In this document: positions 14,151 to 39,468 of the stretch, one piece after another | How the letters are laid out: the number at the start of each line of letters is the position of its first letter | Position numbering within the stretch: the first letter of the stretch is position 1 | Assembly (NCBI GenBank): GCA_947647735.1 | Contig: CANSLJ010000011.1 | Coordinates: 1 to 64,000, forward strand | Length of the DNA: 64,000 nucleotides | Source of the DNA: an uncultured bacterium | GTDB lineage: Bacteria; Bacillota; Clostridia; Lachnospirales; Lachnospiraceae | Direction of reading: 5' to 3' | The notes under the pieces: generated by a model | What the model was told of the DNA's origin: nothing | The model's database searches: none | The model's input: the letters and a program-made list of their open reading frames with translations, nothing else | Made by a program: the position numbers and the translations under genes

Positions 14151-14187
14151 TCACAGATAGAGCATGGAGGCTGAAAGGAAGACGGAA

Positions 14188-17360: not shown

Positions 17361-18503
17361 ATGCAGCTGGAAAGAAATATTCTTTTGAACCCTGGTCCAT
17401 CGACAACAACAGATACCGTTAAAATGGCGCAGATAGTACCTGATATATGCCCACGTGAAAAAGAATTTGCCGATATTATGCGACCAATGCGAGATGAGTT
17501 TGTAAAAATTGTGCATGGTGATATTGAGGAATATACATCTGTTTTATTCTGCGGTTCAGGTACGATCTGTATGGATATAGCATTGAATTCTCTTCTTGAG
17601 GAAGGAAAAAGAGCGTTGGTTATCAATAATGGCTCATATAGCCAACGTGCTGTAGATATTTTAAAGTATTATAATATGCCATTTTTAGAAGCGAAGCAAT
17701 CTGTAATTGAGCCACCGAACTTGATTGAGATTGAAAATATATTGAGAAGTAATAAGGACATTGGATATGTATATATTACTTATCATGAAACAGGTACAGG
17801 ACTTTTAAATCCGGTAAAAGAAGTTGGGAAGATTGCGCATAAATACGGGGCATTTCTGATTGCGGATACAACTTCTGCCTATGCGATGATTCCTATTAAT
17901 GTCTATGAAGAGAACATTGATTTTTGTATGGCCTCTGCACAAAAGGGGATTATGGGGATGACTGGTTTATCTTATATAATCGGGCGCAGAGATATTATAG
18001 AGAGATCAAGGAATTTTCCAAAGCGTTCTTACTATTGTAATTTGTACATGCAATATGAATTTTTTGAAGCGACAGGGGAGATGCATTTTACTCCGCCGGT
18101 ACAGACGATTTATGCAGCAAAGCAGGCGCTGAAAGAATACTGGGATGAAGGAGAATTACAAAAATGGAACAGGCATAGGAGGATTATGTCTGCTATCAGA
18201 GAAGGGATTGACAGATTTGGGTTTCGTGAAGCATTGGAACGTAGTGTGCAGGCAGGGCTTGTGACAGCAATTCTGTATCCAGATGATGAGAATTGGGATT
18301 TTGAAAAAATTCATGATTACTGTTATAGGCATGGTTTTACAATTTATCCAGGGAAAATGCAAAATCATAAAACGTTTCGGTTATGTGCCTTTGGTGCGAT
18401 AGATGAACAGGATATAAAAAGATTTTGGCATGTTTTTGAGGATGCTATGCGCGAGAATAGGGTTTCGATTCCGGTTGTATATAATGAGGTTGATGATGAA
18501 TGA
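17361..18503 (+). CDS. phnW: 2-Aminoethylphosphonate aminotransferase (PhnW-type)
   Basis: Class V, PLP-dependent aminotransferase of 380 residues. PhnW-type enzymes interconvert phosphonoacetaldehyde and 2-aminoethylphosphonate; in a locus with mutase and decarboxylase the biosynthetic direction is expected. Family features include the opening NILLNPGPSTTTDTVKMAQ, CPREKEF, the glycine-rich CGSGTICMDIALNSLL, YHETGTGLLNP, the cofactor Asp in IADTTSAYA and the Schiff-base Lys in SAQKGIMGMTG (about residue 195). Its codon use is more A+T-rich than that of the phosphomutase upstream. It overlaps the following cytidylyltransferase by 8 bases, which supports an aminoethylphosphonate-activation role for that enzyme. 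Confidence 0.92.
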   Translation: MQLERNILLNPGPSTTTDTVKMAQIVPDICPREKEFADIMRPMRDEFVKIVHGDIEEYTSVLFCGSGTICMDIALNSLLEEGKRALVINNGSYSQRAVDILKYYNMPFLEAKQSVIEPPNLIEIENILRSNKDIGYVYITYHETGTGLLNPVKEVGKIAHKYGAFLIADTTSAYAMIPINVYEENIDFCMASAQKGIMGMTGLSYIIGRRDIIERSRNFPKRSYYCNLYMQYEFFEATGEMHFTPPVQTIYAAKQALKEYWDEGELQKWNRHRRIMSAIREGIDRFGFREALERSVQAGLVTAILYPDDENWDFEKIHDYCYRHGFTIYPGKMQNHKTFRLCAFGAIDEQDIKRFWHVFEDAMRENRVSIPVVYNEVDDE

Positions 18504-19206
18504 AATAGCGATTTTAATGGCAGCGGGATTAGGAAGCAGGATGAGTCCTCTAACAGATAAAATAGCGAAACCGTTAATAAAAGTACACGGGATTCCTATG
18601 ATTGAGACAATAATAGATGGTTTGAAAGAGAGGGGGATTTCCCGTATTTATATTGTTGTCGGGTATAAAAAAGAACAGTTTCAGTATTTGACAAGGAAAT
18701 ATCAGAATTTATTTTTAGTGGAAAACAGAGATTATTCTAAAAAAAATAATATGGCATCTATCTTTGCGGTGGCAGACCTTATGGGACAGGAAAATTGTTT
18801 TATTTGTGAGGCCGACTTGTATGTAGCAGATAACTCTATCTTTCAGGAAAAACTGGAGGATTCCTGCTATTTCGGGAAATTGGTCAAAGGATATTCAGAT
18901 GATTGGCTGTTTCTTACTGATAGGCAGGGAAGAATCACATGTATAAAAAAAGGGGGATACAATGCCTATAATATGGCAGGAATTTCTTATTTTAGAAAGG
19001 AAGATGCCAATATAATTGCAAAAGTAATAAAAGAGGCATATGGAGTACCAGAGAAAGGAGAACTTTTTTGGGATGAAATTGTGGATCAAAATTTGGACAG
19101 TTTACATCTTAAAATACATCCAATTGAAAAAGAAAAGGTATTGGAAATTGATACAATAGAAGAACTTGCTAGAATAGATAAGATATATTCAAATTTTCTG
19201 AAATAA
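18496..19206 (+). CDS. LicC/PntC-like CTP:aminoethylphosphonate cytidylyltransferase
   Basis: 236-residue nucleotidyltransferase with the sugar-nucleotidyltransferase opening EIAILMAAGLGSRMSPLTD and PLIKVHGIPMIETII. It then has NNMASIFAVADLMG and the acidic ICEADLYVADNSIF, blocks typical of LicC (CTP:phosphocholine) and PntC (CTP:aminoethylphosphonate) enzymes. Because it overlaps the phnW-type gene, CMP-aminoethylphosphonate is the most likely product, the donor a LicD protein could use. The substrate is inferred from context. ATG18496 has GAGG 6 nt upstream; upstream in-frame codons lie inside phnW. Confidence 0.85.
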   Translation: MNEIAILMAAGLGSRMSPLTDKIAKPLIKVHGIPMIETIIDGLKERGISRIYIVVGYKKEQFQYLTRKYQNLFLVENRDYSKKNNMASIFAVADLMGQENCFICEADLYVADNSIFQEKLEDSCYFGKLVKGYSDDWLFLTDRQGRITCIKKGGYNAYNMAGISYFRKEDANIIAKVIKEAYGVPEKGELFWDEIVDQNLDSLHLKIHPIEKEKVLEIDTIEELARIDKIYSNFLK

Positions 19207-23424: not shown

Positions 23425-25917
23425 ATGAAAAGATATAAGAAGAAAGAGATACTGGAAACGGCGGATTTGTTAATAGAAGGAAACAATTATATTACAAACA
23501 ATTACTCAATGGGCGATAGTATTATTGAAATCTTGTCGCAGAGTCAGGAAATGGCAATATTACTGGGAAATTGTCTGGAAACTTTTGGAGATTCGGCAAA
23601 AGAGCTTGTTTCGGTATTAGAAGATTATTGTGAAAAAATATATCAATTCAGTCAGAGCTTATCAGATGAGTTTACCTGCAGAAAAATAGCAAAGACAACA
23701 ACTAGGCAGCTGGCAAACTTAAAGATAAATATTATAGATCAAATACCGGATGACAGAATAGAGATAGTTTTTTTACCCTATAAAGCATCTATGTGGGATT
23801 CTTTGGAAAGTGTATGGAGGGCGGCAAAAGAGGATCCGGAATGCGATGCTTATGTAGTTCCTATTCCCTATTATGAGAGGAACAATCAGGGAGAACTTGC
23901 GGTTATGCATTATGAGGGGAATCAGTTTCCGAAAGATGTGCCCGTAGTTCATTATATGGATTACAATCTGGCGGAAAGAAGACCAGATGCAGCGTTTATT
24001 CATAATCCATATGATCAGTATAATTATGTGACTAGTGTCCATCCGGCATATTATGTGCCTGAACTCAAAAAATATGTGGGGAAGGTTGCTTATATTCCGT
24101 ATTTTGTGTCAGCAGAGCCTAACCCAGACAGTATAGATGCGCAGGAACAGAAAAAAGGATTTGTAGTAAAACCCGGAGTAATGAATTCGGATCTGGTTTT
24201 TGTGCAATCGGAAGATATGAAACGATTGTATGTGAACATTTTGGAGAGGGAGGTTCCGAATGTAAGCAGGGAGTATTGGGGGAATAAAATTTTCGGATTG
24301 GGATCTCCGAAATTGGATCGTGTTCATGGTACAAAACGTAATGATGATCTTCTTCCGTCTTCCTGGCATTCTCTGATTTATGGCAATGAAGGGAAACGTA
24401 AAAGGGTTATTTTTTATAATACAAGTCTGCATGATCTGCTGAATCAGGATAAGATGATGGATAAGATAGCAGATACATTGGCATTTTTTAAGGAGAGGGA
24501 TGATTGTACATTGTGGTGGAGGCCACATCCATTGTATGAATCAACTCTGGCATCTATGATTCCGGACTTGCTACCAATTTACAGAAAAATCGTGGAGGAT
24601 TATAAGAAAGAAGGATGGGGGATTTTTGACGAGGGTAAAGACCTTAATTGGGCAATCGCGGAAACAGATGCTTACTATGGAGACGGGAGTTCGGTAGTGC
24701 AATTATTTCAGGAAGCGGAAAAGCCAATAATGTATCAAAATACGGAGGTGAAAAATTCGGCTGATGAAAAAGCAGATGTTCCTATTTGGCCGTGTGCTTT
24801 TTGTGTAGATGGAGATGATATCTGGTTTGTGCATGGCAAGATAAACGTATTGATGCGTTACAATATGAAAGAAAAATATACTTATGTTATAGGGAAAATA
24901 CCGAATGAAAAAATGTTTCGAGAGATGTTGTATTCAGCAGTTTGTAAATGGGGTGAAAAGATTTATTTGATTCCATGTTTTGCCCAAAAACTGACAGTTT
25001 ATAATATTAGAGAAAACAGTTTTACCGAGATACCGGTTAAAAATATTAATCAATATGAAGAAAAGGGATTGTTTGAGAGAGCTTATAGGAAGGGGAAATA
25101 CTTATATTGTATTCCTTTCTTATATGAAGCGATTTTAAAGATTAATATGGAAAGTGAGGAAATAGAGTACACAATAATTGGAAAAAAAGGGGACATATAT
25201 ATATCTGATGTGACGAAGGGTGGGAATGAAATAATAGCTATAAACGGGCACGATAATCAATTGCTTTTTTATGATATAGATCATTCGACTTTAAAGTTTA
25301 AAACCTTGGAAGATGTAGAAAAAAAGATAGTTGGGATTGCAGGTATAAAAGATAATTTGTATTTATTTGATATAAATTCACGGTCACTTATTAAAGTAGA
25401 TAAAAAAAGTTTGCAGGAGAAAGATGTTTATAGAATTCCTTATAGGGCAATAAAATTAACAACAATTTCTTCAGAATTTATAATGATTGATTCAACATAT
25501 GATAATGAAAAGAAAATTATAGATAATAAAAAAAGAGTTATTTTTGAGTCATATGAGAAAAATGAAGGTAAAAAGAGTGGTATGTATGCGATATATCATA
25601 GCGGTATAGAGGGGATGAATAATGCAGAGGAGAAAGTGTCTTTTTATTTTACCAGAGATAAGTATGTTATGTATCGATTTAATGAAGGAGAGATAGAATG
25701 GGAGGCTGATATGAGTTTATCTGTGGGTGAGATGAATAAATTGAAAGATTTGTTTTCGGGTATGATGCAGTTAAAAATTGATGAAAATAATTTGTTCAAA
25801 TTAAGGGATTGGATAAAGACGATAGAAAATAAACAAAATATTTATTTAGAAGAGAGAGTTAGTTGTGGAGAAAGAATATTATCGCAAGTAAAAAGGATGG
25901 AAAGAGGAAATGATTAA
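23425..25917 (+). CDS. CDP-glycerol glycerophosphotransferase-like protein with C-terminal beta-propeller-like domain
   Basis: 830 residues. Residues about 105-440 look like the GT-B glycerophosphotransferase group (TagF/TagB): VFLPYKASMWDSLESVWRAA, GKVAYIPYFV, VIFYNTSLHDLL, the donor-binding WWRPHPLYES (about 365) and YYGDGSSVVQLFQEAEKPIM. Residues about 450-760 are short repeated strands (WPCAFCVDGDDIWFVHGKIN, KIYLIPCFAQKLTVYN, GIAGIKDNLYLFD), as in Kelch/WD-type propellers, a rare partner for this enzyme. It may transfer a phospho-polyol from a CDP donor. The stop overlaps the next gene by 8 bases. Strongly A+T-rich. Confidence 0.78.
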   Translation: MKRYKKKEILETADLLIEGNNYITNNYSMGDSIIEILSQSQEMAILLGNCLETFGDSAKELVSVLEDYCEKIYQFSQSLSDEFTCRKIAKTTTRQLANLKINIIDQIPDDRIEIVFLPYKASMWDSLESVWRAAKEDPECDAYVVPIPYYERNNQGELAVMHYEGNQFPKDVPVVHYMDYNLAERRPDAAFIHNPYDQYNYVTSVHPAYYVPELKKYVGKVAYIPYFVSAEPNPDSIDAQEQKKGFVVKPGVMNSDLVFVQSEDMKRLYVNILEREVPNVSREYWGNKIFGLGSPKLDRVHGTKRNDDLLPSSWHSLIYGNEGKRKRVIFYNTSLHDLLNQDKMMDKIADTLAFFKERDDCTLWWRPHPLYESTLASMIPDLLPIYRKIVEDYKKEGWGIFDEGKDLNWAIAETDAYYGDGSSVVQLFQEAEKPIMYQNTEVKNSADEKADVPIWPCAFCVDGDDIWFVHGKINVLMRYNMKEKYTYVIGKIPNEKMFREMLYSAVCKWGEKIYLIPCFAQKLTVYNIRENSFTEIPVKNINQYEEKGLFERAYRKGKYLYCIPFLYEAILKINMESEEIEYTIIGKKGDIYISDVTKGGNEIIAINGHDNQLLFYDIDHSTLKFKTLEDVEKKIVGIAGIKDNLYLFDINSRSLIKVDKKSLQEKDVYRIPYRAIKLTTISSEFIMIDSTYDNEKKIIDNKKRVIFESYEKNEGKKSGMYAIYHSGIEGMNNAEEKVSFYFTRDKYVMYRFNEGEIEWEADMSLSVGEMNKLKDLFSGMMQLKIDENNLFKLRDWIKTIENKQNIYLEERVSCGERILSQVKRMERGND

Positions 25918-27781
25918 ATGTGAGAAAAAATATGATAATGTATATTGGTTTCTGCTGGATGGTTTACGTCCTGATTTTTTACATATAGGTGATAAGAAAA
26001 GTACTGAGCAAAACTTTTTTGATAAGTTATTAGAGCGAGGAACAGTATTTAATAATGTGGTAACAACTGGTGCAGGAACGTTTACTTCTATGCATTCTAT
26101 TTTTACATCATTGCTGCCTTCCTATAATGGAGCGACCGGATGGACAAAGACAGCTTTAAGAAAATTTAACCAGAACATCTTTACGATAGCTGATTATTTT
26201 CAGTTGGGGGGGTATGAAACGTATGTATATGCAGATACAGATGGAGATAAACCGGTACCTTTGTCTGGGTTCAAGATATGGGAGTCTTGCGGTTATAGGA
26301 ATATAATTAAGACAACTAATATGGGAAGGACAGAAAGATATAGGAAATTTATTGAAGAGATAAATAGGAGACAGAGAGGTAAATTTATATATTATCATAC
26401 AGATTTATTGCATGATTTAAATTGTGGATTAGGAGAAGTTTGGAATAGTGAGAAATATGCTGAAAATATTTCTAGAACAGCAGAGGAGTTTGAAACATTA
26501 TTTGCTGATCATCGAATTACAGGGAATGATCTTGTAATTATTTCAGCCGACCATGGTGTTATATTAGATAAAGATTTTTTACAGGATGGAATAAGAAATG
26601 GTGACAGGCAGTATGAAGAGACGGTGATAAGCTTTTTTGCGATAATTGGAAAAGGGATTAAGGCACAAGTTTTATCACAGCCGATTTCTGCATTAGATGA
26701 AGCGCCTACGCTTTTACATATAGCATTAAATCAATCTATGCCGGGACAGGGGGTGGATCGGTATGATTATATGCAAAATGGAGTTTATAGAGAAAGCATA
26801 TTTTTTAGAGAAAAAAACACATATTGTGCGGATAGCAAAGATCAAAGCCCTTTAGAGTCAGATATATTTTATGTTAGAGATGGAAAATGGAAATATGTTT
26901 ATGGAGTAAATGATCCGAGGTGTGAATGGTTGATTGATCTTGAAAATGATGGAGATTATCAGATTAATTTAGTAGATAAATATCCGGAGTTAGTGAAAAA
27001 ATATAAGACGATATTAAAGGAGAGGTTTTCAAAATGTATAGGTTTTCAATATATTTCTAATCTGGGATTTGATAAGAGAGTGTTAGAGAAAAAGTTTTCT
27101 CTTGTGTTGAATGTAGATCAGATATGTAAAGAAACAATGGAATCGCTGTTAGATTTAGGAGGGGCATACCATGAAATAATACTTTATGGAAAAGAGGATG
27201 AGTATCCTGAATATAGGGATAATTATAAAGTGAAGATTGTAGAAAAATCTAATAAGAATAAAATTGACGAATTATGCAGTGGTGAATGGATAGTACTAAT
27301 AAGCGAAAATGGCGAATGGTCTGGATATTTTCTATCAGATTTATATAGGTATATTCAAGGATATGAAGAAGAAACTGTGCGAATTACCAATAAAAATTTC
27401 CTGGCAGTTAAAAAGAAAGATTTAAATAATGCAGAGTGCAAAAAACTGGAAGTAAAAGGAGAAATTAGAACTATTACATACGCATGTAAAGATGATAAAG
27501 GGAAAAGATATATTTTATTTGGGTGCGGTAAAATAGGGAAAAGGGCTCTGGAGTATTTGGGAAAAGAGAATGTTTATTACTTTGTAGATAATAATTTAAC
27601 GACAATAGGGGAAGAAAGATATGGAAAAAAAGTCATAGGTTTTGACGAACTGAAAAGGATATACAATGATTATACTATTGTCATTTCGGTAAGCCCTAAT
27701 ACGAATGCAGCATATGAAATAAAAAAGCAGTTAGAAGAGAGTGAAATTTATGATTATGTAATGTTTGATATAAATAGTTAA
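25910..27781 (+). CDS. Sulfatase-like protein with C-terminal Rossmann-like module
   Basis: 623 residues without signal peptide or membrane segments. The N-terminal alkaline-phosphatase/sulfatase fold begins at once: YWFLLDGLRPDFLHIG (metal Asp near 17), GAGTFTSMHSIFTSLLPSYN (candidate nucleophile Thr/Ser) and IISADHGVILD (Asp-His near 213). The Cys/Ser-x-Pro-x-Arg formylglycine signature of true sulfatases is missing, so phosphate or phosphonate chemistry is more likely. Residues about 532-623 are the locus-wide module, YILFGCGKIGKRALEYLG ... YYFVDNNL. Overlap with the glycerophosphotransferase-like gene suggests joint action. Confidence 0.78.
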   Translation: MIKCEKKYDNVYWFLLDGLRPDFLHIGDKKSTEQNFFDKLLERGTVFNNVVTTGAGTFTSMHSIFTSLLPSYNGATGWTKTALRKFNQNIFTIADYFQLGGYETYVYADTDGDKPVPLSGFKIWESCGYRNIIKTTNMGRTERYRKFIEEINRRQRGKFIYYHTDLLHDLNCGLGEVWNSEKYAENISRTAEEFETLFADHRITGNDLVIISADHGVILDKDFLQDGIRNGDRQYEETVISFFAIIGKGIKAQVLSQPISALDEAPTLLHIALNQSMPGQGVDRYDYMQNGVYRESIFFREKNTYCADSKDQSPLESDIFYVRDGKWKYVYGVNDPRCEWLIDLENDGDYQINLVDKYPELVKKYKTILKERFSKCIGFQYISNLGFDKRVLEKKFSLVLNVDQICKETMESLLDLGGAYHEIILYGKEDEYPEYRDNYKVKIVEKSNKNKIDELCSGEWIVLISENGEWSGYFLSDLYRYIQGYEEETVRITNKNFLAVKKKDLNNAECKKLEVKGEIRTITYACKDDKGKRYILFGCGKIGKRALEYLGKENVYYFVDNNLTTIGEERYGKKVIGFDELKRIYNDYTIVISVSPNTNAAYEIKKQLEESEIYDYVMFDINS

Positions 27782-29636: not shown

Positions 29637-31976
29637 ATGAATTATACAAAGGCAGAAATGCTGCAATATTTAAAAAAGAATATACCGTCATTGCATATTT
29701 TACCTGTTTTTATAGTCAGAAGTGAAAATTTTTTGAAAAATCGTGAAGAAGAAGTAAAACATGTTATGGAATTTTCCAAGGGAGAATTATTGATTGTTCG
29801 GTCTTCCTCTGTTCTGGAAGATACAGAAGGGTACTCAAATGCAGGAAAATTTAAGTCAGTTATTAATGTTCTTCCGGATCAGAAGCATATTGAAGAAGCA
29901 ATTAATGACGTCTATGCATCTTATGGTACAGAGGATGATGAGCAGATTCTGATTCAGCCGATGCTGAAAAATCTAAAGGGATCTGGGGTTGTTTTCACAT
30001 CTGATATTGAGACATTTGCGGGGTACTACACAGTTAATTACAATGTGGGGAGTGATTCATCTGCTGTAACAGGCGGAAGTTCAAACGATCTTAGCACCTT
30101 TATCAGGTATAAAGAAAGTCGGATACCAATAGAAGATAAAGATATGCGGAATTTGTTGGATACCTGTAAGAAGATAGAGATTTTTTTGAATAATGATGCC
30201 CTTGATATAGAGTTTGCAGTTACTAATGATGGAACAGTTTATATTTTACAGGTAAGACCGATTGCCAGAAAAAATAAGAATTTTGAAACGAAAAAAACAG
30301 ATCTGGCATCTACGTTAAAACGTATTTATAAAAAGGCAAAAAAGTTATCACAAAGACATCCATTTTTGCTGGGGAATACTACTTGTTTTGGTGTAATGAC
30401 AGATTGGAACCCGGCAGAGATTTTGGGCGTCAGGCCTAAAAAATTAGCAATATCATTATATAAAGAATTGATAACAGACAGTATCTGGGCACATCAGAGA
30501 TATGATTATGGATATCGGAATCTGACAATGCATCCGTTGATGATTTCATTTTGTGGAGTACCATACATAGATACCAGAATTACTTTTAATTCTTTTGTAC
30601 CTCAAAATTTGAATGAAAGAATAGCAGAGAAATTAGTAGACTATTATCAGAATAAGCTGGCAGAATATCCTAAATATCATGATAAGGTTGAGTTTGAAAT
30701 AGTGTATTCCTGCTATTATCTGGGGCTGCCTCAAAAACTGAAGGAATTGCTTTGTTATGGATTTAACGAAAATGAAATTTCAAGGATAGAGTACTCGCTG
30801 CTGGATTTAACAAATCGTATTATCAATCCTCAAGAAGGTTTGTATAAAAAGGATATAAATAAAATTAAGATACTTGAATCAAATTATGAGACAATACTCC
30901 GCTCTGATATATCTTTAGTAGATAAAATATACTGGCTCATAGAAGAATGCAAAATGTATGGAACATTGCCTTTTGCCGGAGTAGCAAGAGCCGGATTTAT
31001 CGCAGTTCAGTTTTTGCGGTCTTTTGTTGAGACTGGAATTTTAACAAAAAGTGATTATGATTTATATATGAATTCATTGGACACTATAAATAAGAGGATG
31101 AATTCTGATTTAAAAAGATATTTTATGGGAGAAATTACATTTGAAGAATTTATAGATAAGTATGGGCATATTCGTCCCGGGACATACGATATTACTTCCA
31201 AACGTTATGATGAAGCATTTGATGAGTATTTTGATAAAGATTCTTATTTGACAATTGATAATGAACAGTCAGAATATGTCTTTACGGAGAATCAGATGGT
31301 CAGGATTCAGTTTGAACTAGAACAAAATGGTCTCCTTGTAACAGCTGATGAACTGATGTTGTTTATTAAGGAGGCTATAGAGGGGAGAGAATATCTAAAA
31401 TTTATTTTTACAAAAGCGGTGAGCAAAATACTCCAGCTTATCGAGGAACTTGGAAAAAGAGCAGATATTGAGAAAGAAGATATGGCTTATCTGGATATTT
31501 CTGTGGTGAGACATTTATATTCAGATTTATATACAGGAGATATCCGAACTATTTTCGAACAAAACATTCGCAATAATAAAAAACAATATCAAAACGCAGT
31601 ACAGATTAAGCTGCCCAGTATTCTGGTAAAGCCGGAAAATGTGTACTCATTTTATTTGTTGAATGAGGAACCTAATTTTATCACACAGGATAGAGTCATG
31701 TCAGAAGTGATAGTACTGGATGAGGCGAAGGAAAATTCTCCGGAAGGTAAGATTGTGTTTATACAGGCGGCGGATCCAGGATATGATTTTCTGTTTTCAA
31801 AAAACATAGCCGGATTGATCACACAATTTGGCGGGGCAAATTCGCATATGGCTATCAGATGCGCTGAACTTGGGATTCCTGCGGTTATCGGCGCAGGGGA
31901 AAAGAATTATACAGAATGGAAAAAATGGAATAAAATTATGATCGACTGCTTGAATAAAAGCGTGAAAAGGATATAA
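29637..31976 (+). CDS. PEP-synthase-like dikinase, probable L-glutamine kinase (Cj1418 type)
   Basis: 779 residues in the order ATP-grasp, central domain, swivelling phosphohistidine domain. The ATP-binding half has ELLIVRSSSVLEDTEGYSNA, EQILIQPMLKNLKGSGVVF and IEFAVTNDGTVYILQVRPIA. The catalytic His (about residue 737) lies in GGANSHMAIRCAELGIPAVI, close to the C-terminus, with no PEP/pyruvate barrel behind it. PEP synthase is thus excluded; rifampin phosphotransferase and Campylobacter Cj1418 share this order. Cj1418 phosphorylates the side-chain amide of L-glutamine, the first step to capsule phosphoramidate. The next genes match the other three enzymes of that route, which makes glutamine kinase the best call. 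ATG29637 has GGAG close by; the upstream in-frame TTG is less likely. Confidence 0.82.
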   Translation: MNYTKAEMLQYLKKNIPSLHILPVFIVRSENFLKNREEEVKHVMEFSKGELLIVRSSSVLEDTEGYSNAGKFKSVINVLPDQKHIEEAINDVYASYGTEDDEQILIQPMLKNLKGSGVVFTSDIETFAGYYTVNYNVGSDSSAVTGGSSNDLSTFIRYKESRIPIEDKDMRNLLDTCKKIEIFLNNDALDIEFAVTNDGTVYILQVRPIARKNKNFETKKTDLASTLKRIYKKAKKLSQRHPFLLGNTTCFGVMTDWNPAEILGVRPKKLAISLYKELITDSIWAHQRYDYGYRNLTMHPLMISFCGVPYIDTRITFNSFVPQNLNERIAEKLVDYYQNKLAEYPKYHDKVEFEIVYSCYYLGLPQKLKELLCYGFNENEISRIEYSLLDLTNRIINPQEGLYKKDINKIKILESNYETILRSDISLVDKIYWLIEECKMYGTLPFAGVARAGFIAVQFLRSFVETGILTKSDYDLYMNSLDTINKRMNSDLKRYFMGEITFEEFIDKYGHIRPGTYDITSKRYDEAFDEYFDKDSYLTIDNEQSEYVFTENQMVRIQFELEQNGLLVTADELMLFIKEAIEGREYLKFIFTKAVSKILQLIEELGKRADIEKEDMAYLDISVVRHLYSDLYTGDIRTIFEQNIRNNKKQYQNAVQIKLPSILVKPENVYSFYLLNEEPNFITQDRVMSEVIVLDEAKENSPEGKIVFIQAADPGYDFLFSKNIAGLITQFGGANSHMAIRCAELGIPAVIGAGEKNYTEWKKWNKIMIDCLNKSVKRI

Positions 31977-31978
31977 AA

Positions 31979-32512
31979 ATGAAAAAAAATTTTATGATGT
32001 ATCTTATAGGAATAAGTGGAAGTGGAAAAACAACGATCGCTAATGCATTATATGAAAGACTGAAGTCCTTAGAAACGGAAAAAATTCAGGTGATTGACGG
32101 AGACGTTATAAGAAAACAGTTTGGCGATATTTTTGGAAATACATATGAAGAACGGATGAAATGTAACCGCGTAGTACGGGTGGTGGTAAACTATTTGATT
32201 GACAATCAAATATCTGTGATTTTGGCACAAGTAGCGCCATATAAGGAAATGCGCCAGAAGGTTCGAGAGCAGTTTGGTGAACGTTATATTGAAGTGTATG
32301 TGAAATGTTCCTTGGAAGAATGCGCCAGAAGGGATGTAAAAGGATATTATAAGAAGTTTAGAGACGGAGAGATCAGTAATCTCAACGGGGCGAATGATGT
32401 TTACGAGATACCGGATAATTATGATATTTTGGTTGATACAGAGCAGGAAACAGTAGAAGGCTGTGTAGAGAAAATAGTGGATTATTTGAAGGAGAATGGG
32501 TATGTCATATAA
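31979..32512 (+). CDS. APS-kinase-like kinase, probable cytidine diphosphoramidate kinase (Cj1415 type)
   Basis: 177-residue P-loop kinase of the adenylylsulfate kinase family: MMYLIGISGSGKTTIANALY, VIDGDVIRKQFGDIFG, and a partner-binding loop ending NGANDVYEIPDNYDILVDT. There is no ATP sulfurylase or other sulfate gene nearby, which argues against sulfate activation. In C. jejuni the homologue Cj1415 phosphorylates the 3'-OH of cytidine 5'-diphosphoramidate, the analogue of making PAPS from APS. It lies 2 bases behind the glutamine-kinase-like gene. The sugar/polyol kinase alternative remains open. Confidence 0.82.
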   Translation: MKKNFMMYLIGISGSGKTTIANALYERLKSLETEKIQVIDGDVIRKQFGDIFGNTYEERMKCNRVVRVVVNYLIDNQISVILAQVAPYKEMRQKVREQFGERYIEVYVKCSLEECARRDVKGYYKKFRDGEISNLNGANDVYEIPDNYDILVDTEQETVEGCVEKIVDYLKENGYVI

Positions 32513-33050
32513 ATATATTACGGATAATAATTTGTATCATAAACAGAATTATATGTATGCAAAATATGAAGGAGAAGAGTTTCTGGAAGCCTATTTAAAA
32601 TCCAGAGAAGTCAGCAGGGAAGTAATAAAAGATGAAAAAACAAAAGAAAGCGTAGAAGAAAAGAGTGTGGTTCTGCTGGAACTCCAGAAGCTCTATACTG
32701 ATATAAAAAACGGAAATACGAATGTTATCGATTTGATAAATGCTTATGTGAAGTCATTTGAAGTGAGAAAAAGGCTTTATACGGAATATTTGGAATGGAA
32801 ACCGACAGAGGGGGCTTCCTTTGAGGAGTATAAATCATATTTAACATTTTCAGATTGTTTGTTGGAGAGTTATAGGAAGACAAAGTGTTTGAAGTATTAT
32901 AGTTGTCTATTGAAGGTGGATGATATGTTGCTTTCTGTTCAGTCTCTATTGACAGATAGAGAAAGAGAACATTTGTCAGAAATTATCACTGAGGAAGTGA
33001 AAATTTTCGGGGCATTATCAGAGGAATATGGAGTGATGTTGGAGGGATAA
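32502..33050 (+). CDS. Orphan helical protein inside the phosphoramidate cassette
   Basis: 182 residues; family not recognised. The sequence is mostly predicted helix, charged and Tyr-rich (SYKYITDNNLYHKQNYMYAK at the start; YKSYLTFSDCLLESYRKTKC near 115), without membrane segments or a clear catalytic motif. ATG32502 has AAGGAG 7 nt upstream and lies within the end of the kinase gene, so translation is coupled. The position between the kinase and the formyltransferase argues for a role in the same pathway, perhaps as a transfer or binding partner; I cannot say more. Confidence 0.7.
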   Translation: MSYKYITDNNLYHKQNYMYAKYEGEEFLEAYLKSREVSREVIKDEKTKESVEEKSVVLLELQKLYTDIKNGNTNVIDLINAYVKSFEVRKRLYTEYLEWKPTEGASFEEYKSYLTFSDCLLESYRKTKCLKYYSCLLKVDDMLLSVQSLLTDREREHLSEIITEEVKIFGALSEEYGVMLEG

Positions 33051-33051
33051 A

Positions 33052-33783
33052 ATGATACTTAGTGATTTTGCAATGGTTGCCGCGGATACGGCAAGATCAA
33101 AAGCATATATACAGGCGATGATTCGGGAGGAAAAATATCCGGCATTATGTATTATATATTCAGAAGACTGTGAGGGAATGGGGGAACAGGCGAAAATATA
33201 TAAACACAAAGAAGTCCAGACGGATTATTTTGATGTAGATTGTCCGATTATTTTTTCGTTGGAAAAAGCGGGGATACCGTATGTATTAGTGAATAGTAGA
33301 AATATTAATTCAGAACAGATGACGGAAGTAATACGTACTTCTGAAGAAAAGTATCTGATATATTCGGGATATGGTGGAGAGATATTAAAGAAACCATTAT
33401 TTCAGTTAGGGAAAAAATATATACATATTCATGCGGGAATACTTCCGAAATATCGAGGCAGTACCACTTTTTATTATAGTTATCTTCAGGAGGGAAAGGT
33501 AGGAGCAACAGCTATATTTCTGAACGAAAAGATTGACTGTGGAGAAATTATTACACAAAGCGTGTTTGAGGTGCCGCAGAAAATGGTTAATGCGGATTAT
33601 ATATATGAACCATATATTCGATCGCAGGTATTGGTTAATGTATTGAATAAATATATTGAGTGTGGTGGATTTGCGCCAAGGAGCCAGGAGAATGAAAAAG
33701 CAGAAGATTATTTTATTATTCATCCAGTGCTAAAACATTTGGCATTATTGAAAATGGGATATCAGGAAAATTCAGGAGAATAA
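33052..33783 (+). CDS. Formyltransferase-family protein
   Basis: 243 residues of the methionyl-tRNA formyltransferase/sugar N-formyltransferase fold. The key block is YIHIHAGILPKYRGSTTFYY (about 122-141), containing the catalytic His of the HxSLLPxxRG motif in variant form, and the loop EKIDCGEIITQ carries the essential Asp. The protein is short and lacks the tRNA-binding C-terminal domain, so a small amine such as an aminosugar or another precursor amine is the likely substrate, with N10-formyltetrahydrofolate as donor. It starts 1 base after the orphan stops and ends 1 base before the next gene. Confidence 0.8.
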   Translation: MILSDFAMVAADTARSKAYIQAMIREEKYPALCIIYSEDCEGMGEQAKIYKHKEVQTDYFDVDCPIIFSLEKAGIPYVLVNSRNINSEQMTEVIRTSEEKYLIYSGYGGEILKKPLFQLGKKYIHIHAGILPKYRGSTTFYYSYLQEGKVGATAIFLNEKIDCGEIITQSVFEVPQKMVNADYIYEPYIRSQVLVNVLNKYIECGGFAPRSQENEKAEDYFIIHPVLKHLALLKMGYQENSGE

Positions 33784-33784
33784 A

Positions 33785-34399
33785 ATGCAGAAAGTTATAT
33801 ATACGCAGAGAGTGGAAATTGTTGAGAGTTATCAGGAACGCAGAGATTGTGCTGATCAGAGAATAGCAGATTTTATATATGCATGTGGTTTTCTGCCGGT
33901 GCCGGTGCCAAATAAAAATGACATTTTGGAAGAATTTGTTTTACAGTTACAACCGGCCGGGATTATCTTGACAGGTGGAAATAGTTTGGAAAAATATGGA
34001 GGAAATGCGCCGGAAAGGGATAGGACAGACCGAAGGCTGATTGGGATTGCGATAGAAAAGGGCATCCCGCTATATGGGTTTTGCAGGGGGATGCAGTCCA
34101 TACTGGATTACTTTGGAGATGCACTGGTTAGTATAGGTGGACATGTTGCAGTCAGACATAAAGTTTATTGTGAAAATGCGTCAAAAGAAGTAAACAGCTA
34201 TCATACACAGGCATGTGTAGAATTAGGAAAGCAATCAGAATTGAAAGTGATTTCGAGGACGGAGGATGATGTTATAGAAGAAATTTGTCATTCCAAGTTC
34301 TTGATTCATGGTACTATGTGGCATCCGGAGAGAGAGAATCCTTTTCGGGAAACGGATATTGAGTGTGTGAAAGCATTGTTTGGGAGGAAAATTTCATGA
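33785..34399 (+). CDS. Class I amidotransferase-type hydrolase, probable gamma-glutamyl-CDP-amidate hydrolase (Cj1417 type)
   Basis: 204-residue peptidase C26/PuuD-like hydrolase. The nucleophile Cys is in YGFCRGMQSILDYFGD (about residue 100), and the His-Glu pair is in GTMWHPERENPF (about 180). Family members cleave gamma-glutamyl amides. In C. jejuni Cj1417 removes glutamate from CDP-activated phosphoglutamine to release cytidine diphosphoramidate. The flanking kinase and cytidylyltransferase genes fit this role. It overlaps the next gene by ATGA. On its own it could also be a gamma-glutamyl-GABA hydrolase; the context makes that less likely. Confidence 0.83.
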   Translation: MQKVIYTQRVEIVESYQERRDCADQRIADFIYACGFLPVPVPNKNDILEEFVLQLQPAGIILTGGNSLEKYGGNAPERDRTDRRLIGIAIEKGIPLYGFCRGMQSILDYFGDALVSIGGHVAVRHKVYCENASKEVNSYHTQACVELGKQSELKVISRTEDDVIEEICHSKFLIHGTMWHPERENPFRETDIECVKALFGRKIS

Positions 34400-35181
34400 A
34401 AGCAATTATTTTAGCGGCAGGACAGGGAACAAGATTGAAAAAGTATACGGAAAATCTGCCTAAAGGCATGCTGACTTTTATGGGAAAAACTATTATAGAA
34501 AGGCAAATAGAAATATATCGTAAATGTGGCATAGACAATATTGTCATTATCAGAGGTTTTGAAGCAGAAAAAATATGTTATACAGGGGTTACCTATTATA
34601 CAAATAAAGATTATGAGAATACGAATATGGTTGTATCTCTTATGACGGCGAAAGCGGAATTTGATGAGGACGTGATTGTAAGTTATTCGGATATTTTATT
34701 TGAAGAACAGATGTTGAAAAGGATGATGGCGTCTGAGGAAGATTTTGTGGTGGCAGTAGATGATAGCTGGAAAGTATACTGGGAAAAGCGATACGGCAGA
34801 GTGGATTTTGATACGGAAAGCCTTTCTCTGGACAGTGAAAACAATATTAAGGAGTTGGGGCTTGAGAATCCTGAATTGAGTGATATTGATGCGAGATATG
34901 TAGGGCTGTTAAAATTTTCGAGGCGGGGTTTGGAATATATTACACAAATATATGATGATGCATGTAGAAATTATAAAGACAGACCGTGGCAGCAGTCGGG
35001 GAAAACAGTACAAAAGGCATATATGACAGATTTACTTAATGCGGTTATACAGTCGGGACAGAGGATTAGAGCTGAGAGGTTTAGGAACGGCTGGATTGAA
35101 TTTGATACTAATGAAGACTATGAAAAGGCATGTGATTGGGTAGAGAACAATAGTATTTATGAAATTTTGAAATTAGAGTGA
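34396..35181 (+). CDS. Nucleotidyltransferase, probable CTP:phosphoglutamine cytidylyltransferase (Cj1416 type)
   Basis: 261 residues. Opening loop AIILAAGQGTRLKKYTENLP with Lys in PKGMLTFMGKTIIERQIEIY, then NTNMVVSLMTAKAEFDEDVI and the metal-binding SYSDILF. RWGRVDF-like and NGWIEFDTNEDYEKACD elements resemble LicC-type cytidylyltransferases. The Campylobacter relative Cj1416 joins CMP to L-glutamine phosphate. Start ATG34396 overlaps the hydrolase stop; an in-frame ATG at 34363 lies inside that gene and has no site. It is the last of the four phosphoramidate enzymes. Confidence 0.83.
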   Translation: MKAIILAAGQGTRLKKYTENLPKGMLTFMGKTIIERQIEIYRKCGIDNIVIIRGFEAEKICYTGVTYYTNKDYENTNMVVSLMTAKAEFDEDVIVSYSDILFEEQMLKRMMASEEDFVVAVDDSWKVYWEKRYGRVDFDTESLSLDSENNIKELGLENPELSDIDARYVGLLKFSRRGLEYITQIYDDACRNYKDRPWQQSGKTVQKAYMTDLLNAVIQSGQRIRAERFRNGWIEFDTNEDYEKACDWVENNSIYEILKLE

Positions 35182-35259: not shown

Positions 35260-36285
35260 ATGAGGCCTGTTATTATTTTTGGGGCAGGAAAAAAAGGACT
35301 GAAATTATTAGAAAAATTAAATAGGAATGCGGTAGCTTTTTTTGCTGATAATGACCAAAGTAAACATGGGGGGGTAATTGAAGGAATAGAAATTATTTCT
35401 TTTGAAAGATTGGCAGAAATATATGATGAATATGATGTGATTTTGTCTTTTTATTCGAATGAAGTAGCCGCACAATTTGAAAATAATGAAATTCCGTATT
35501 GGAATAATGAGAATAGTGAAAATTGTTACTTTAACAGAGAGGATATTAAAAATGAGATAGATAAGAACTTATTATGGCGATATAAAAATGATATGGAGTT
35601 AAAAGATAGGGCATACATAACAGAGTGTGGGAATTGGTATCGAAAAGAATATTGTTCAATAGAAAATGAGCAGCTTGTAAAGATGATGGAAGAATGCCGA
35701 ACAGAGGAAATTTCATTATTTTTAAAAAAGATATATTCTTCAGATGAAATATATGAAGATGAATATTATAGAAATCGTCCTGGAATGAGATTGATAAGGA
35801 ATATTCTTTGTTCAAATAAAGGGGATTACGGAAAAAGGGTGATGGATCTTGGATGTGGGCATGGAGAATTATTATTGGAACTAAAGAAAGAGGGATTTAT
35901 GACTTGCGGTGTTGACCAGAGCATAAATCGGATACAATATTTGCAAAGGTTAGGGATAGATTGTATACATGCGAATGTAGAAGCAGATTTTACCTGTGAT
36001 AACCAATTTGATGTAGTAGTATGTCAGGAGTGTCTGGAGCATGTGGCTGATCCTTTAAAAGTGTTGGAAAAAGTAAAAACACTATTAAGATATGGTGGGA
36101 GCATATTTATAACCGTTCCATATGGTAAAAGCTGTGAGAGTGTCACTCATGTAAGGCAGTTCGATGAAAATAGATTGTATTCATTGTTAATAGAAATAGG
36201 ATTTGAGGTTATCAACATTATAAAATTACCATATTTGAATTATAGTGGTAATGTAAATTTATTTGTGGAAGCGAAAAAGGTATAG
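35260..36285 (+). CDS. Rossmann-like module fused to SAM methyltransferase
   Basis: 341 residues. The N-terminal module reads RPVIIFGAGKKGLKLLEKLN ... AFFADNDQSKHGG. A class I methyltransferase starts near residue 190: VMDLGCGHGELLLELK (motif I), FDVVVCQECLEHVADPLKVL and YGGSIFITVPYG. It is the first gene after the phosphoramidate enzymes. In C. jejuni two methyltransferases, Cj1419 and Cj1420, accompany that pathway and are thought to methylate the phosphoramidate. This gene and the next are candidates for the same job, but C- or O-methylation of a sugar is equally open. Confidence 0.85.
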   Translation: MRPVIIFGAGKKGLKLLEKLNRNAVAFFADNDQSKHGGVIEGIEIISFERLAEIYDEYDVILSFYSNEVAAQFENNEIPYWNNENSENCYFNREDIKNEIDKNLLWRYKNDMELKDRAYITECGNWYRKEYCSIENEQLVKMMEECRTEEISLFLKKIYSSDEIYEDEYYRNRPGMRLIRNILCSNKGDYGKRVMDLGCGHGELLLELKKEGFMTCGVDQSINRIQYLQRLGIDCIHANVEADFTCDNQFDVVVCQECLEHVADPLKVLEKVKTLLRYGGSIFITVPYGKSCESVTHVRQFDENRLYSLLIEIGFEVINIIKLPYLNYSGNVNLFVEAKKV

Positions 36286-36372: not shown

Positions 36373-38181
36373 ATGAAAAAATATCTATTGTTTGGTGCCG
36401 GGACATACGCTCGGACAGCAATAAACCTTTTGGGAAAAGATCAGATAGCCTGTATTTATGATAATAGTTCAGATAAATGGGAAACAGAAGTGGAAGGGAT
36501 TCCTGTAAAGGCACTGCCCAAAGATGCGGATGAATTGTCGGACAGGCAGATGATCATTTCCGTTTCTCAAAAATATCAGAAAGAAATAATATCCCAATTG
36601 GAAAAACTGGGAGTGTCTGATTACAGAACCCTTCAGGATATACAGACGGAAATCATCAGAGAAAAGTTAGAAAAACGAATAGATTATATAGAAATTTATC
36701 GAAAAGCGATTGGCTGGATTGGAAATAACAGCATTAATGGAGAATCGATAATTTGTAATACAGATAAAAGGAAAGGATATCCGGAAGTGACGGGATACTA
36801 TATTCCTACCCTGTTGAAGTGGGGGTATCGTGAACTGGCGATTTCGTATGCAAAGTGGCTCTGCAAAATACAGAAGCCGGATGGTTCCTGGTATGATACG
36901 GATAACAGAGAACCGTATGTTTTTGACAGCGCTCAAATATTAAAAGGGCTGATCGCGGTCAGGGAGATATATCCGGAGGCGGATGTACATATCAAAAAGG
37001 GCTGTGACTGGATATTGACAAATATGCAGGAGAATGGCAGGCTGACAACTCCTTCTAAAACGGCCTGGGGAAATCCGGGAGTGTGTTCTGAACTGATTCA
37101 TTTATATTGTCTTTCTCCATTGGTTGAAGCAGCAGAAAAATTAGCGGTGCCTCAATATAAGGAAGCGGCTTATAAGGTACTTCATTATTATAAAGAAAAC
37201 CATTATGAAGAGATCATGAATTTTGGTTTTCTGTCTCATTTTTATGCCTATGTGATGGAAGCGTTACTGGATATGGGTGAGATGGAGATGGCCAGGGAGG
37301 CTATGGGAAAGGTTGCACGCCTGCAGAAGGAAAACGGGGCAGTACCTGCGTATCATAATGTAGATTGGGTGTGTTCTACGGGACTGTTTCAGCTTGCTGT
37401 GGTATGGTTTCGGCTGGGGGAGATAGACAGAGGAAACAGAGCCTTCGGCTATGCCTGTAAATTACAAAATGAATCAGGCGGCTGGTTCGGGAGTTATTTG
37501 TCGGAGGACAGTAAAGAGGAAGATAATGATTATTTTCCGACATCTGAGATCAGTTGGGCGGTGAAATATTTTCTGGATGCTTTATATTATAAAAACCTTG
37601 CGGAGTTTGACCTCTGGGCGGATTCGTTTCTGCCAGTCATTGACAAAGAGGACGGAAGGTATGGGATTATAAAAGATGAAGTGGTAAAGCTTGGAGGGCA
37701 GAAATCCAAACTGGCTGTTTGTGATGTCGGCTGTGGGAAAGGTCGTTATTTAGATAATCTTTTGCTGGATATTCCTGAAAACAGATATTGTGGGGTGGAT
37801 CTATCGGAGAGAGTATTGAAATATATTGTCAGAGATCGTATTGAGAAAAAGCAGGGGGGCCTTACGCAGATTCCGTATCCGGATGATATGTTTGATGTGA
37901 CTTATACCTGCGAGGCTTTGGAACATGCGGTGGATATTTACAGTGCTGTCAGAGAAATGGCACGAGTGACGAAGCCGGGCGGGAAGATCATAGTAATCGA
38001 TAAAAATAAGGAAGCACTCGGAAGGCTTGAGATTTCAGAATGGGAAGTCTGGTTTGATCTGAATGAACTTAAAGGTATTATGGAAGAATTATGTACAGAG
38101 GTAGATGTGGTACGGGATATTCCATATGAAGGAAGGACAGGGGATAATCTTTTTGCGGCATGGATCGGAATAGTGAAGTGA
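36373..38181 (+). CDS. Three-domain protein: Rossmann-like module, alpha/alpha toroid, methyltransferase
   Basis: 602 residues. Residues 1-95 are the locus-wide module (YLLFGAGTYARTAINLLG ... CIYDNSSDKW). Residues about 120-420 form helical hairpins with aromatic-rich repeats (QKPDGSWYDTDNREPYVFDS, NESGGWFGSYLSED), as in terpene-cyclase-like or glycan-processing alpha/alpha toroids. Residues about 450-602 are a methyltransferase (VCDVGCGKGRYLDNLL, FDVTYTCEALEHAVDIYSAV, KPGGKIIVIDKNKEA). The combination is unusual. The gene starts behind GGGGGTAAA and is the last of the A+T-rich block; G+C rises again within it. Confidence 0.8.
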   Translation: MKKYLLFGAGTYARTAINLLGKDQIACIYDNSSDKWETEVEGIPVKALPKDADELSDRQMIISVSQKYQKEIISQLEKLGVSDYRTLQDIQTEIIREKLEKRIDYIEIYRKAIGWIGNNSINGESIICNTDKRKGYPEVTGYYIPTLLKWGYRELAISYAKWLCKIQKPDGSWYDTDNREPYVFDSAQILKGLIAVREIYPEADVHIKKGCDWILTNMQENGRLTTPSKTAWGNPGVCSELIHLYCLSPLVEAAEKLAVPQYKEAAYKVLHYYKENHYEEIMNFGFLSHFYAYVMEALLDMGEMEMAREAMGKVARLQKENGAVPAYHNVDWVCSTGLFQLAVVWFRLGEIDRGNRAFGYACKLQNESGGWFGSYLSEDSKEEDNDYFPTSEISWAVKYFLDALYYKNLAEFDLWADSFLPVIDKEDGRYGIIKDEVVKLGGQKSKLAVCDVGCGKGRYLDNLLLDIPENRYCGVDLSERVLKYIVRDRIEKKQGGLTQIPYPDDMFDVTYTCEALEHAVDIYSAVREMARVTKPGGKIIVIDKNKEALGRLEISEWEVWFDLNELKGIMEELCTEVDVVRDIPYEGRTGDNLFAAWIGIVK

Positions 38182-38402: not shown

Positions 38403-39347
38403 ATGGGTAAAGCAGATATCTATGAAAGTGATTATCTGGAAAATGAAGAAATTTTCGCGGATTTGGTAAATGGTGTTCTTTATCAGGGAAAGCAGATTGT
38501 GAAGCCGCAGGAGCTAAGTGAGCAGGATGGAGAACTGAGAAGTATCTCCATGAATCAGACGAAAAAGATAATTCGGGATAAAGCAAAAATGTGGAGAGGT
38601 ACTGCATTTGTTGTATTTTCGTTGGAAAATCAAACGAAAGTGGATTATCGAATGGTATTTCGGGCAATGTTGTCTGAGAGCATGGCTTATGATAAACAAC
38701 TTAAGAAGCGGAAAGAAGAATGGAAGAAAAAAGAAAATCAATCATCAGAAGAATTTATATCCGGTATGGGAAAAGAAGATAAATTCATTCCGATTATAAC
38801 AATTGTCATTTACTATGGAAAAGAAAAGCAATGGGATGGGGCCAGGACGCTTTATGAACTTTTGGATACGAAAGGTAACGGTGAAATAATTTTGCCATAT
38901 ATTTCAAATTATCGACTGAATGTATTTGATTATCATGAGTATGATGATTTTGGGCAGTTTCATTCAGAATTACAGTCAGTTTTTGAATTTCTCAGATACG
39001 CAGGAGATAAAAGGCTGTTAGGTGAAAAATTGAAGAAAAATGAGGAGAAATACAGAAAATTAAGCAGTCAGGCAAAAGCATTATTAGCACACCTTACAAA
39101 TATTAAAAAGCTGCCGGATGTAAAATCGGAGGATATTGAGAAGGGAGAATTTGATATGTGTAAAGCATTTGAAGATATGAAAGAAGAGGGCAGAATTGAA
39201 GGAAAAGCTGAAGCAATTATAGAAATGGGGTATGAATTTAAACTTTCTGAAGGCAGTATTTTAGAAAAGCTGCGGCGTAAATTAGATATATCCGCAGAAG
39301 AAGCACAGAGACTTTTTGCTATATTTAATAAAAAGGCAGTGTTATAA
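38403..39347 (+). CDS. Rpn/YhgA-like PD-(D/E)XK nuclease family protein
   Basis: 314-residue member of the recombination-promoting nuclease (Rpn)/putative-transposase family that is often present in many copies in Lachnospiraceae. The N-terminal nuclease-like core includes DYLENEEIFADLVNGVLYQG and DKAKMWRGTAFVVFSLENQT. The middle has FIPIITIVIYYGKEKQWDG, typical of the family. The charged C-terminal region (EEGRIEGKAEAIIEMGYEFK) is the usual degenerate repeat ending. Such genes can move between sites. It interrupts the glycan locus and shares no function with its neighbours. Confidence 0.8.
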   Translation: MGKADIYESDYLENEEIFADLVNGVLYQGKQIVKPQELSEQDGELRSISMNQTKKIIRDKAKMWRGTAFVVFSLENQTKVDYRMVFRAMLSESMAYDKQLKKRKEEWKKKENQSSEEFISGMGKEDKFIPIITIVIYYGKEKQWDGARTLYELLDTKGNGEIILPYISNYRLNVFDYHEYDDFGQFHSELQSVFEFLRYAGDKRLLGEKLKKNEEKYRKLSSQAKALLAHLTNIKKLPDVKSEDIEKGEFDMCKAFEDMKEEGRIEGKAEAIIEMGYEFKLSEGSILEKLRRKLDISAEEAQRLFAIFNKKAVL

Positions 39348-39400
39348 CTGGATCGAAGACGGAAACAGAAAGATATTTTGTCACAATATGATTATAAAAG

Positions 39401-39450
39401 AAAAAACTTCCAATGTAAGAAATACAATTAGCTTATATTGGAAGTTTTTT
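39401..39450 (+). terminator. Strong terminator after the Rpn-like gene
   Basis: A 19-bp stem with one G-T pair joins 39401-39419 (AAAAAACTTCCAATGTAAG) and 39432-39450, and the downstream arm ends in TTTTTT. The A-run on the other side means it can work in both directions. It is just upstream of the next ribosome binding site. Confidence 0.8.
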
Positions 39451-39468
39451 AATGGGAGGAATTGTAAA

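What the first reader, a model, noticed from the sequence alone, without database searches (positions are those of the whole stretch)
29637..35181. A Campylobacter-type capsule phosphoramidate pathway in a Gram-positive gut-type bacterium
Within 5.5 kb lie, on one strand and nearly overlapping, the four enzyme families that in C. jejuni (Cj1415-Cj1418) make 3'-phosphocytidine 5'-diphosphoramidate. They are an ATP-grasp/phosphohistidine kinase without a PEP barrel, an APS-kinase-like kinase with no sulfate genes nearby, a gamma-glutamyl-amide hydrolase, and a CTP nucleotidyltransferase. Any one alone is ambiguous; together they point strongly to P-N bond synthesis. Methyltransferase domains follow directly, as in Campylobacter. 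The set sits in a surface-glycan locus. I know of this pathway from Campylobacter capsules; its presence in a flagellated clostridium would be new to me.
Basis: partly seen in the sequence, partly recalled or inferred. Interest (0 to 1): 0.93.

Follow-up and report, generated by a model that had tools for sequence, protein, structure and literature searches.

The report
Phosphorus–nitrogen glycan pathway in gut clostridia
A bacterium, most likely a gut member of the Lachnospiraceae, carries in one tight gene block relatives of the four enzymes that Campylobacter uses to build a rare phosphorus–nitrogen group for its capsule, plus two further conserved proteins that likely modify this group before it is likely added to a surface or flagellar sugar; the same core genes occur in many other phyla, so this chemistry is probably far more widespread than thought.

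Summary
29637-35181 is a six-gene block (gaps -11 to +2 nt): KIN, APSK, X184, FMT, HYD, NTT. KIN is 46% identical over full length to the kinase of a Campylobacter-type capsule locus and shares a clade with it; HYD, NTT and APSK are 30-32% identical. The core is predicted to make 3'-phosphocytidine 5'-diphosphoramidate. Against the APSK step, NCBI's curated model calls it APS kinase, though no ATP sulfurylase was found in four carrier genomes. KIN, HYD and NTT share a stretch in 34 of 46 named-genome hits, across phyla and in one thaumarchaeal assembly. X184-FMT is a recurrent pair, not seen in six Campylobacter-type loci, and seems to hold the place of their methyltransferases (fusions); the window's own methyltransferases are of another kind. 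In six of nine flagellated carriers it lies within 35 kb of flagellin. The window also holds the 2-aminoethylphosphonate (P-C) pathway. A new variant of a known kind; no biochemistry.

The parts
29637..31976 (+). KIN: predicted L-glutamine kinase (779 aa), ATP-grasp plus phosphohistidine mobile domain; His737 in GGANSHMAIRC
   Evidence: NF004508 966 bits; 46% to Campylobacter-type kinase; His737 invariant in the 9 sequences aligned
31979..32512 (+). APSK: APS-kinase-fold protein, predicted cytidine diphosphoramidate 3'-kinase
   Evidence: PF01583; 30% to Campylobacter-type relative; no ATP sulfurylase found; against: TIGR00455 apsK 161 bits, over its cut-off of 138.7
32502..33050 (+). X184: helical protein without family, directly before FMT in each locus where both were found
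   Evidence: no Pfam/NCBIfam hit; AF2 pLDDT 88.6; pair with FMT; fused to APSK in L068
33052..33783 (+). FMT: formyltransferase-fold protein, His-x-His in place of Asn-x-His; predicted tailoring enzyme of the P-N group
33785..34399 (+). HYD: predicted gamma-glutamyl-CDP-amidate hydrolase (class-I amidotransferase fold)
   Evidence: NF045546 104 bits, best hit, under cut-off; C100, H180, E182 invariant in 63 aligned
34396..35181 (+). NTT: predicted CTP:phosphoglutamine cytidylyltransferase
   Evidence: 32% to Campylobacter-type relative; signature residues Y97, W129, R132, W233 differ in the window's other NTT
35260..36285 (+). MT1: methyltransferase, not of the Campylobacter P-N kind; substrate unknown
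36373..38181 (+). MT2: C-terminal methyltransferase domain after a weakly terpene-cyclase-like stretch; not of the Campylobacter P-N kind
23425..25917 (+). P830: candidate glycan phosphotransferase, weak TagF-like region; relatives lie upstream of the kinase in L014, L107, L108
   Evidence: hhalign E 0.0016 but probability 16%
25910..27781 (+). SULFA: alkaline-phosphatase/sulfatase superfamily protein, candidate transferase or hydrolase
   Evidence: PF00884 50.8 bits
27807..29576 (+). SULFB: same superfamily, weak; directly upstream of KIN, as is L108's homologue
   Evidence: PF00884 19.3 bits, under cut-off
2606..4084 (+). flagellin
   Evidence: PF00669 and PF00700
7989..8810 (+). LicD-family phosphotransferase
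   Evidence: PF04991 146.6 bits
13014..14150 (+). phosphonopyruvate decarboxylase (P-C pathway)
   Evidence: TIGR03297 448.5 bits, cut-off 312.5
14164..15480 (+). PEP mutase with N-terminal cytidylyltransferase-like domain (P-C pathway)
   Evidence: TIGR02320 411.7 bits, cut-off 319.55; PF01467
17361..18503 (+). 2-aminoethylphosphonate aminotransferase (P-C pathway)
   Evidence: TIGR03301 410.4 bits, cut-off 360.8
18430..19206 (+). second NTT, possibly for 2-aminoethylphosphonate; lacks the P-N signature residues

Best explanation
The block is a six-gene cluster whose kinase, hydrolase, cytidylyltransferase and APS-kinase-like proteins are homologues of the Campylobacter phosphoramidate enzymes, so it is predicted to turn glutamine, ATP and CTP into 3'-phosphocytidine 5'-diphosphoramidate; its two further proteins, FMT and X184, likely modify the P-N group, which is then likely transferred to a surface glycan, probably that of flagellin. 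Predicted steps: KIN phosphorylates the side-chain amide of glutamine through His737; NTT joins phosphoglutamine to CMP; HYD (Cys100) cuts off glutamate and leaves CDP-NH2; APSK phosphorylates the 3'-OH, which makes a PAPS-like donor; FMT with X184 acts on the same intermediate, in the place that methyltransferases hold in Campylobacter, most simply by adding a formyl group from formyl-tetrahydrofolate to the P-NH2. The final transferase is not identified (candidates: P830, SULFA, SULFB). Shown: homology, gene order, fusions, conserved residues, distribution. Inferred: every reaction, the FMT/X184 step most of all, and the glycan target.
For: Kinase family, identity and tree; the three partner homologues; active-site columns in relatives from kinase loci: HYD C100, H180, E182 in 63 of 63, NTT G9, G11, R13, K23, D99 in 63 of 63 (a few paralogous NTTs of the same loci were not removed). 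KIN, HYD and NTT in one stretch in 34 of 46 named-genome hits; some of the other 12 are cut by the 8-kb limit. Fusions: kinase-hydrolase in Lachnospiraceae, kinase with an NTT-like N-terminal domain in L030, L031, L045, L060. No ATP sulfurylase found. X184 and FMT adjacent (gap -40 to 0 nt) in 20 of 20 loci where both were found, three of them duplicates; in two more the partner lies beyond the locus end. X184 in 3 of 397 genomes of the family, all among the 14 with KIN (3.5e-5 under random placement). APSK-X184 fusion in L068, APSK-methyltransferase fusion in L125: one slot, two tailoring modules. Flagellin within 35 kb in 6 of the 9 flagellated genomes among 17 searched; without window and congener 4 of 7, p 1.1e-4 (uniform placement assumed, the 35 kb set after seeing the distances).
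Against: No biochemistry. HYD lies under NCBI's cut-off (104 of 250 bits). Three of the four are only 30-32% identical. The kinase family also occurs without NTT beside it, so the family alone does not prove a CDP-linked product. FMT is nearest by sequence to VioF-type sugar N-formyltransferases and almost equally to Met-tRNA formyltransferase and could act on an amino sugar; its catalytic Asn is His, so formyl transfer itself is unproven. Another methyltransferase family lies in 5 loci with FMT, so FMT does not simply exclude methylation. Eight of the 17 genomes show no flagellin, so flagella cannot be the general target.
Confidence: 0.7

Rival explanations
1. The four homologues make plain 3'-phospho-CDP-phosphoramidate as in Campylobacter, and FMT with X184 is a sugar N-formyltransferase pair that merely travels with it.
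For: Profile A3 is nearest in the PDB by sequence to VioF and another sugar N-formyltransferase; the locus makes a complex glycan.
Against: X184-FMT sits inside the block in the same six-gene order in Lachnospiraceae, Pelagibacterales and Prochlorococcus; X184 only in kinase-carrying genomes among 397; APSK-X184 fusion; the Asn of the formyltransferase active site is His in all 24 aligned.
Confidence: 0.2
2. The kinase family phosphorylates another amide or small molecule and the block makes a different CDP-linked phospho-group for the glycan, with no P-N bond in the product.
For: NTT, HYD and APSK are only 30-32% identical to the Campylobacter-type set; kinase-hydrolase fusions without NTT exist; APSK is over the APS-kinase cut-off.
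Against: The gamma-glutamyl-hydrolase partner suits a glutamine-derived intermediate; kinase 46% identical over full length and in one clade with the Campylobacter-type kinases.
Confidence: 0.1
3. A PEP-synthase-like enzyme, an APS kinase for sulfation and a nucleotidyltransferase for a sugar lie side by side by coincidence.
For: Generic Pfam names; APSK over the TIGR00455 cut-off.
Against: Same gene set across phyla, no ATP sulfurylase found, no PEP-barrel hit, PEP-synthase models at most 63 bits.
Confidence: 0.03

Closest known systems
O-methyl phosphoramidate (MeOPN) pathway of the Campylobacter jejuni capsule (Cj1415-Cj1418 with Cj1419/Cj1420 and transferases; gene numbers other than Cj1418 recalled)
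   Same: Homologues of all four nucleotide-phosphoramidate enzymes, kinase in the same clade as Campylobacter-type kinases
   Different: Methyltransferases of another kind; no DUF2972 or PF05159 domain in the 40 window proteins scanned; X184 and FMT added; flagellin-side locus; P-C pathway beside it
N-formyltransferases (Met-tRNA Fmt, ArnA, QdtF, VioF) for FMT
   Different: Catalytic Asn is His; conserved GST/GSTT and C-terminal HPxL motifs; linked to P-N genes
2-aminoethylphosphonate biosynthesis (PepM-Ppd-PhnW)
   Same: All three over curated cut-offs in this window
   Different: Lies in the same flagellin-side locus as a predicted P-N pathway

Membership tests
Campylobacter MeOPN pathway | glutamine kinase homologue with mobile-domain His | tested here: met
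Campylobacter MeOPN pathway | cytidylyltransferase, gamma-glutamyl hydrolase and APS-kinase-like 3'-kinase homologues together | tested here: met
   (homology and conserved residues only; activities untested)
Campylobacter MeOPN pathway | Cj1419/Cj1420-type methyltransferase | tested here: not met
   MT2 18.7 bits, MT1 no hit; another window methyltransferase (54326-55267) 34.5 bits; members 182-649
Campylobacter MeOPN pathway | DUF2972 transferase and kps capsule genes beside it | tested here: not met
   present in L118; none in the 40 window proteins scanned; the rest of the genome not searched
Campylobacter MeOPN pathway | P-N group on a glycan | not testable with these tools
   needs 31P NMR or MS
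NF045546 gamma-glutamyl-CDP-amidate hydrolase (equivalog) | score over curated cut-off of 250 bits | tested here: not met
   104 bits; relatives in kinase loci of G443, G446 and G518 are also under it
NF004508/PRK05849 | score over curated cut-off of 501 bits | tested here: met
   966 bits; Campylobacter-type kinase 1173
adenylyl-sulfate (APS) kinase | score over the TIGR00455 cut-off | tested here: met
   161 against 138.7 bits; the Campylobacter-type relative 127
adenylyl-sulfate (APS) kinase | ATP sulfurylase in the genome to supply APS | tested here: not met
   PF01747 0 of 4, TIGR02039 over cut-off 0 of 4
10-formyl-THF formyltransferase | Asn-x-His ... Asp active site | tested here: not met
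   His-x-His ... Asp in all 24 aligned; the Asn-His-Asp rule is recalled
2-aminoethylphosphonate pathway | PEP mutase, phosphonopyruvate decarboxylase, AEP aminotransferase | tested here: met
   all over NCBIfam cut-offs

The most novel reading that the evidence does not exclude
A six-enzyme pathway, shared by gut clostridia and marine bacteria, makes a formyl-capped phosphoramidate that no one has described, and in Lachnospiraceae and Alteromonas it decorates flagellar glycans that also carry phosphonate, so that one glycan holds both P-N and P-C bonds.
Probability: 0.28. Interest if true: 0.93.

Novelty: new variant of a known kind. Interest (0 to 1): 0.8.

Why it matters
A 2019 review says the group has been identified only in Campylobacter and a 2022 review calls the glutamine kinase C. 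jejuni-specific (passages of PMC6429109, and PMC9561416). The gene core is in fact spread across bacterial phyla and seen in one thaumarchaeal assembly, with a second tailoring module (X184-FMT) tied to it. That makes P-N bond formation a directly testable, common surface chemistry in gut and ocean bacteria, gives two protein families a concrete substrate hypothesis, and predicts flagellins that carry P-N, in some species together with P-C. In Campylobacter a phage recognises the group and it modulates serum resistance (titles in the reference list shown), so similar roles are thinkable in commensals.
Full report
What is there. The block 29637-35181 holds six + strand genes with gaps of +2, -11, +1, +1 and -4 nt: KIN, APSK, X184, FMT, HYD, NTT. 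KIN has the PPDK_N ATP-grasp part and the mobile phosphohistidine domain but no PEP-barrel hit; its best family is NF004508 at 966 bits, cut-off 501. The window belongs to a 4.1-Mb assembly; its congener G006 has a contig of the same length (150,662 bases) as a public record titled Lachnospiraceae bacterium A24_16.AM.DSS, so the family is Lachnospiraceae by inference.

Comparison with Campylobacter. No named C. jejuni record was at hand. Over the order around the Campylobacterales genome G443, 27 of 348 genomes carry the hydrolase at E 1e-22 or better, 18 over the curated cut-off of gamma-glutamyl-CDP-amidate hydrolase. One such locus, L118 (G784), has two methyltransferases, KIN (779 aa), HYD, NTT, APSK and two PF05159 capsule genes in a row, with a DUF2972 protein upstream; this is the order that I recall for Cj1420-Cj1413. 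Window against L118: KIN 46%, NTT 32%, HYD 32%, APSK 30%. In a 62-row kinase tree (quick search, SH-aLRT only) the window lies in a 21-row clade of support 99 with five other Bacillota rows (Fusibacter and window-type Lachnospiraceae), the six Campylobacter-type kinases, most other Campylobacterota and one Pelagibacteraceae; one Helicobacteraceae kinase (L045/L127) lies outside. Most kinases of other Lachnospiraceae, the hydrolase fusions among them, form a separate group, and G296 pairs with Azospirillum next to the clade. Transfer between phyla is likely. On this tree FMT presence needs 10 changes, at least 9 forced by well-supported branches.

Residues. In 63 aligned hydrolases from kinase loci Cys100, His180 and Glu182 are invariant; in 63 cytidylyltransferases G9, G11, R13, K23 and D99 are invariant, and Y97, W129, R132, D139, E141, Y168 and W233 are at least 90% conserved but differ in the window's second cytidylyltransferase at 18430-19206 (a few paralogues of the same loci were not removed). 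The mobile-domain His737 aligns with that of PEP synthase and is invariant in the nine kinases aligned.

The APSK step is the least certain of the core. NCBI's TIGR00455 calls the window protein an APS kinase (161 bits, cut-off 138.7), while the Campylobacter-type relative sits in NF004041 (292 bits; window 106.5, under the cut-off of 127). Yet ATP sulfurylase was found in 0 of 4 carrier genomes, and CysD over its cut-off in 0 of 4.

Distribution. A codon-restricted scan of genome contigs for the kinase motif gave 46 stretches; 45 hold a kinase, 39 kinase and hydrolase, 34 kinase, hydrolase and cytidylyltransferase, 16 also APSK (many stretches are cut at 8 kb). Titles among the 34 include Pelagibacteraceae, SAR116, Prochlorococcus, Gammaproteobacteria, Sulfuricurvum, Christiangramia, Omnitrophota, KSB1, Fibrimonadales and a marine group I thaumarchaeote. 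Of 15 plasmids with a match, the six records opened show kinase, hydrolase and cytidylyltransferase side by side by annotation in Azospirillum, Vibrio, Pseudohalocynthiibacter and Agrobacterium, by position in a Deltaproteobacterium (two of the three are named hypothetical), and the kinase alone in Cupriavidus. In the window's family 14 of 397 genomes have the kinase.

Where the group goes. Of 17 genomes with FMT (13 of the 14 named ones, L072 left out, and four of the window's family), 9 have flagellin; in 6 of the 9 FMT is within 35 kb of flagellin on the same contig: 30.4 kb (window), 30.7 kb (G006), 32.3 kb (G150), 3.4 kb (G793), 3.0 kb (G796, Alteromonas ponticola), 16.5 kb (G442). In the other three, flagellin lies on other contigs. 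The 35 kb limit was set after seeing the distances, and placement was taken as uniform. L042 in G793 also has FlgK, and the A. ponticola island has FliD and NeuB-family genes. The eight genomes without a flagellin match mean that another glycan must serve there. Sulfatase-superfamily and TagF-like neighbours are transferase candidates, none proven.

P-C beside P-N. The window encodes PEP mutase, phosphonopyruvate decarboxylase and 2-aminoethylphosphonate aminotransferase, all over curated cut-offs, and a second cytidylyltransferase. PEP mutase is in 3 of the 17 genomes with FMT (window, G006, A. ponticola), each on the contig of the P-N block, and in 1 of 4 congeners that lack the kinase. In A. 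ponticola it lies about 12 kb from FMT with phosphonopyruvate decarboxylase beside it. G006 and G001 lack the aminotransferase and second cytidylyltransferase at the matching place.

Verdict. The P-N core is well supported by homology, context and the missing sulfate activation; chemistry is untested. Because methyltransferase and transferase features of the Campylobacter pathway were tested and not met, I file this not as the MeOPN pathway but as a new variant of nucleotide-phosphoramidate biosynthesis. On checking against the calls I lowered the main odds from 0.74 to 0.70 and the novel case from 0.30 to 0.28 for the APS-kinase score.

Noticed in passing
window 13014-19206: Complete 2-aminoethylphosphonate pathway in the same locus as the P-N block, next to flagellin; PEP mutase carries an N-terminal cytidylyltransferase-like domain. 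The congener G001 has PEP mutase and decarboxylase without the kinase.
   Followed up: partly
L016, L110-L114, L038, L074: Kinase-hydrolase fusion proteins (850-1032 aa as called; some may be cut by locus ends) in Lachnospiraceae without a cytidylyltransferase found beside them; they might release free phosphoramidate.
   Followed up: no
L030, L031, L045, L060: Kinases of 993-1069 aa that also match the NTT profile (45-132 bits), with a separate NTT gene two places on: kinase fused to a second cytidylyltransferase-like domain.
   Followed up: no
L017, L055, L116: Kinases without hydrolase or cytidylyltransferase beside them; in L017 followed by bactofilin, an amino-acid-kinase-family gene, undecaprenyl diphosphate synthase and a CTP-transferase.
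   Followed up: no
L015:2834-5614: Kinase with about 150 extra N-terminal residues that read to me like a TagD-type cytidylyltransferase (motif recalled, not tested), beside a sulfotransferase-like gene.
   Followed up: no
L032: Agrobacterium vitis plasmid: kinase, hydrolase and cytidylyltransferase followed by a LysE translocator and a CDP-alcohol phosphatidyltransferase, which may mean a phosphoramidate lipid.
   Followed up: no
window 25910-27781, 35260-36285, 36373-38181, 39316-40593: A shared small domain (FGAGxxGxxALxxL...DN) at the end of SULFA and of a glycosyltransferase and at the start of MT1 and MT2 (read from the sequences; some cross-matches).
   Followed up: no
window 36373-38181: Methyltransferase behind a stretch with weak terpene-cyclase hits (TIGR01787 31 bits, cut-off 323).
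   Followed up: no
G804:C4:88733-89458: A second strong FMT copy (E 2.5e-85) in the Pelagibacterales genome of L079.
   Followed up: no
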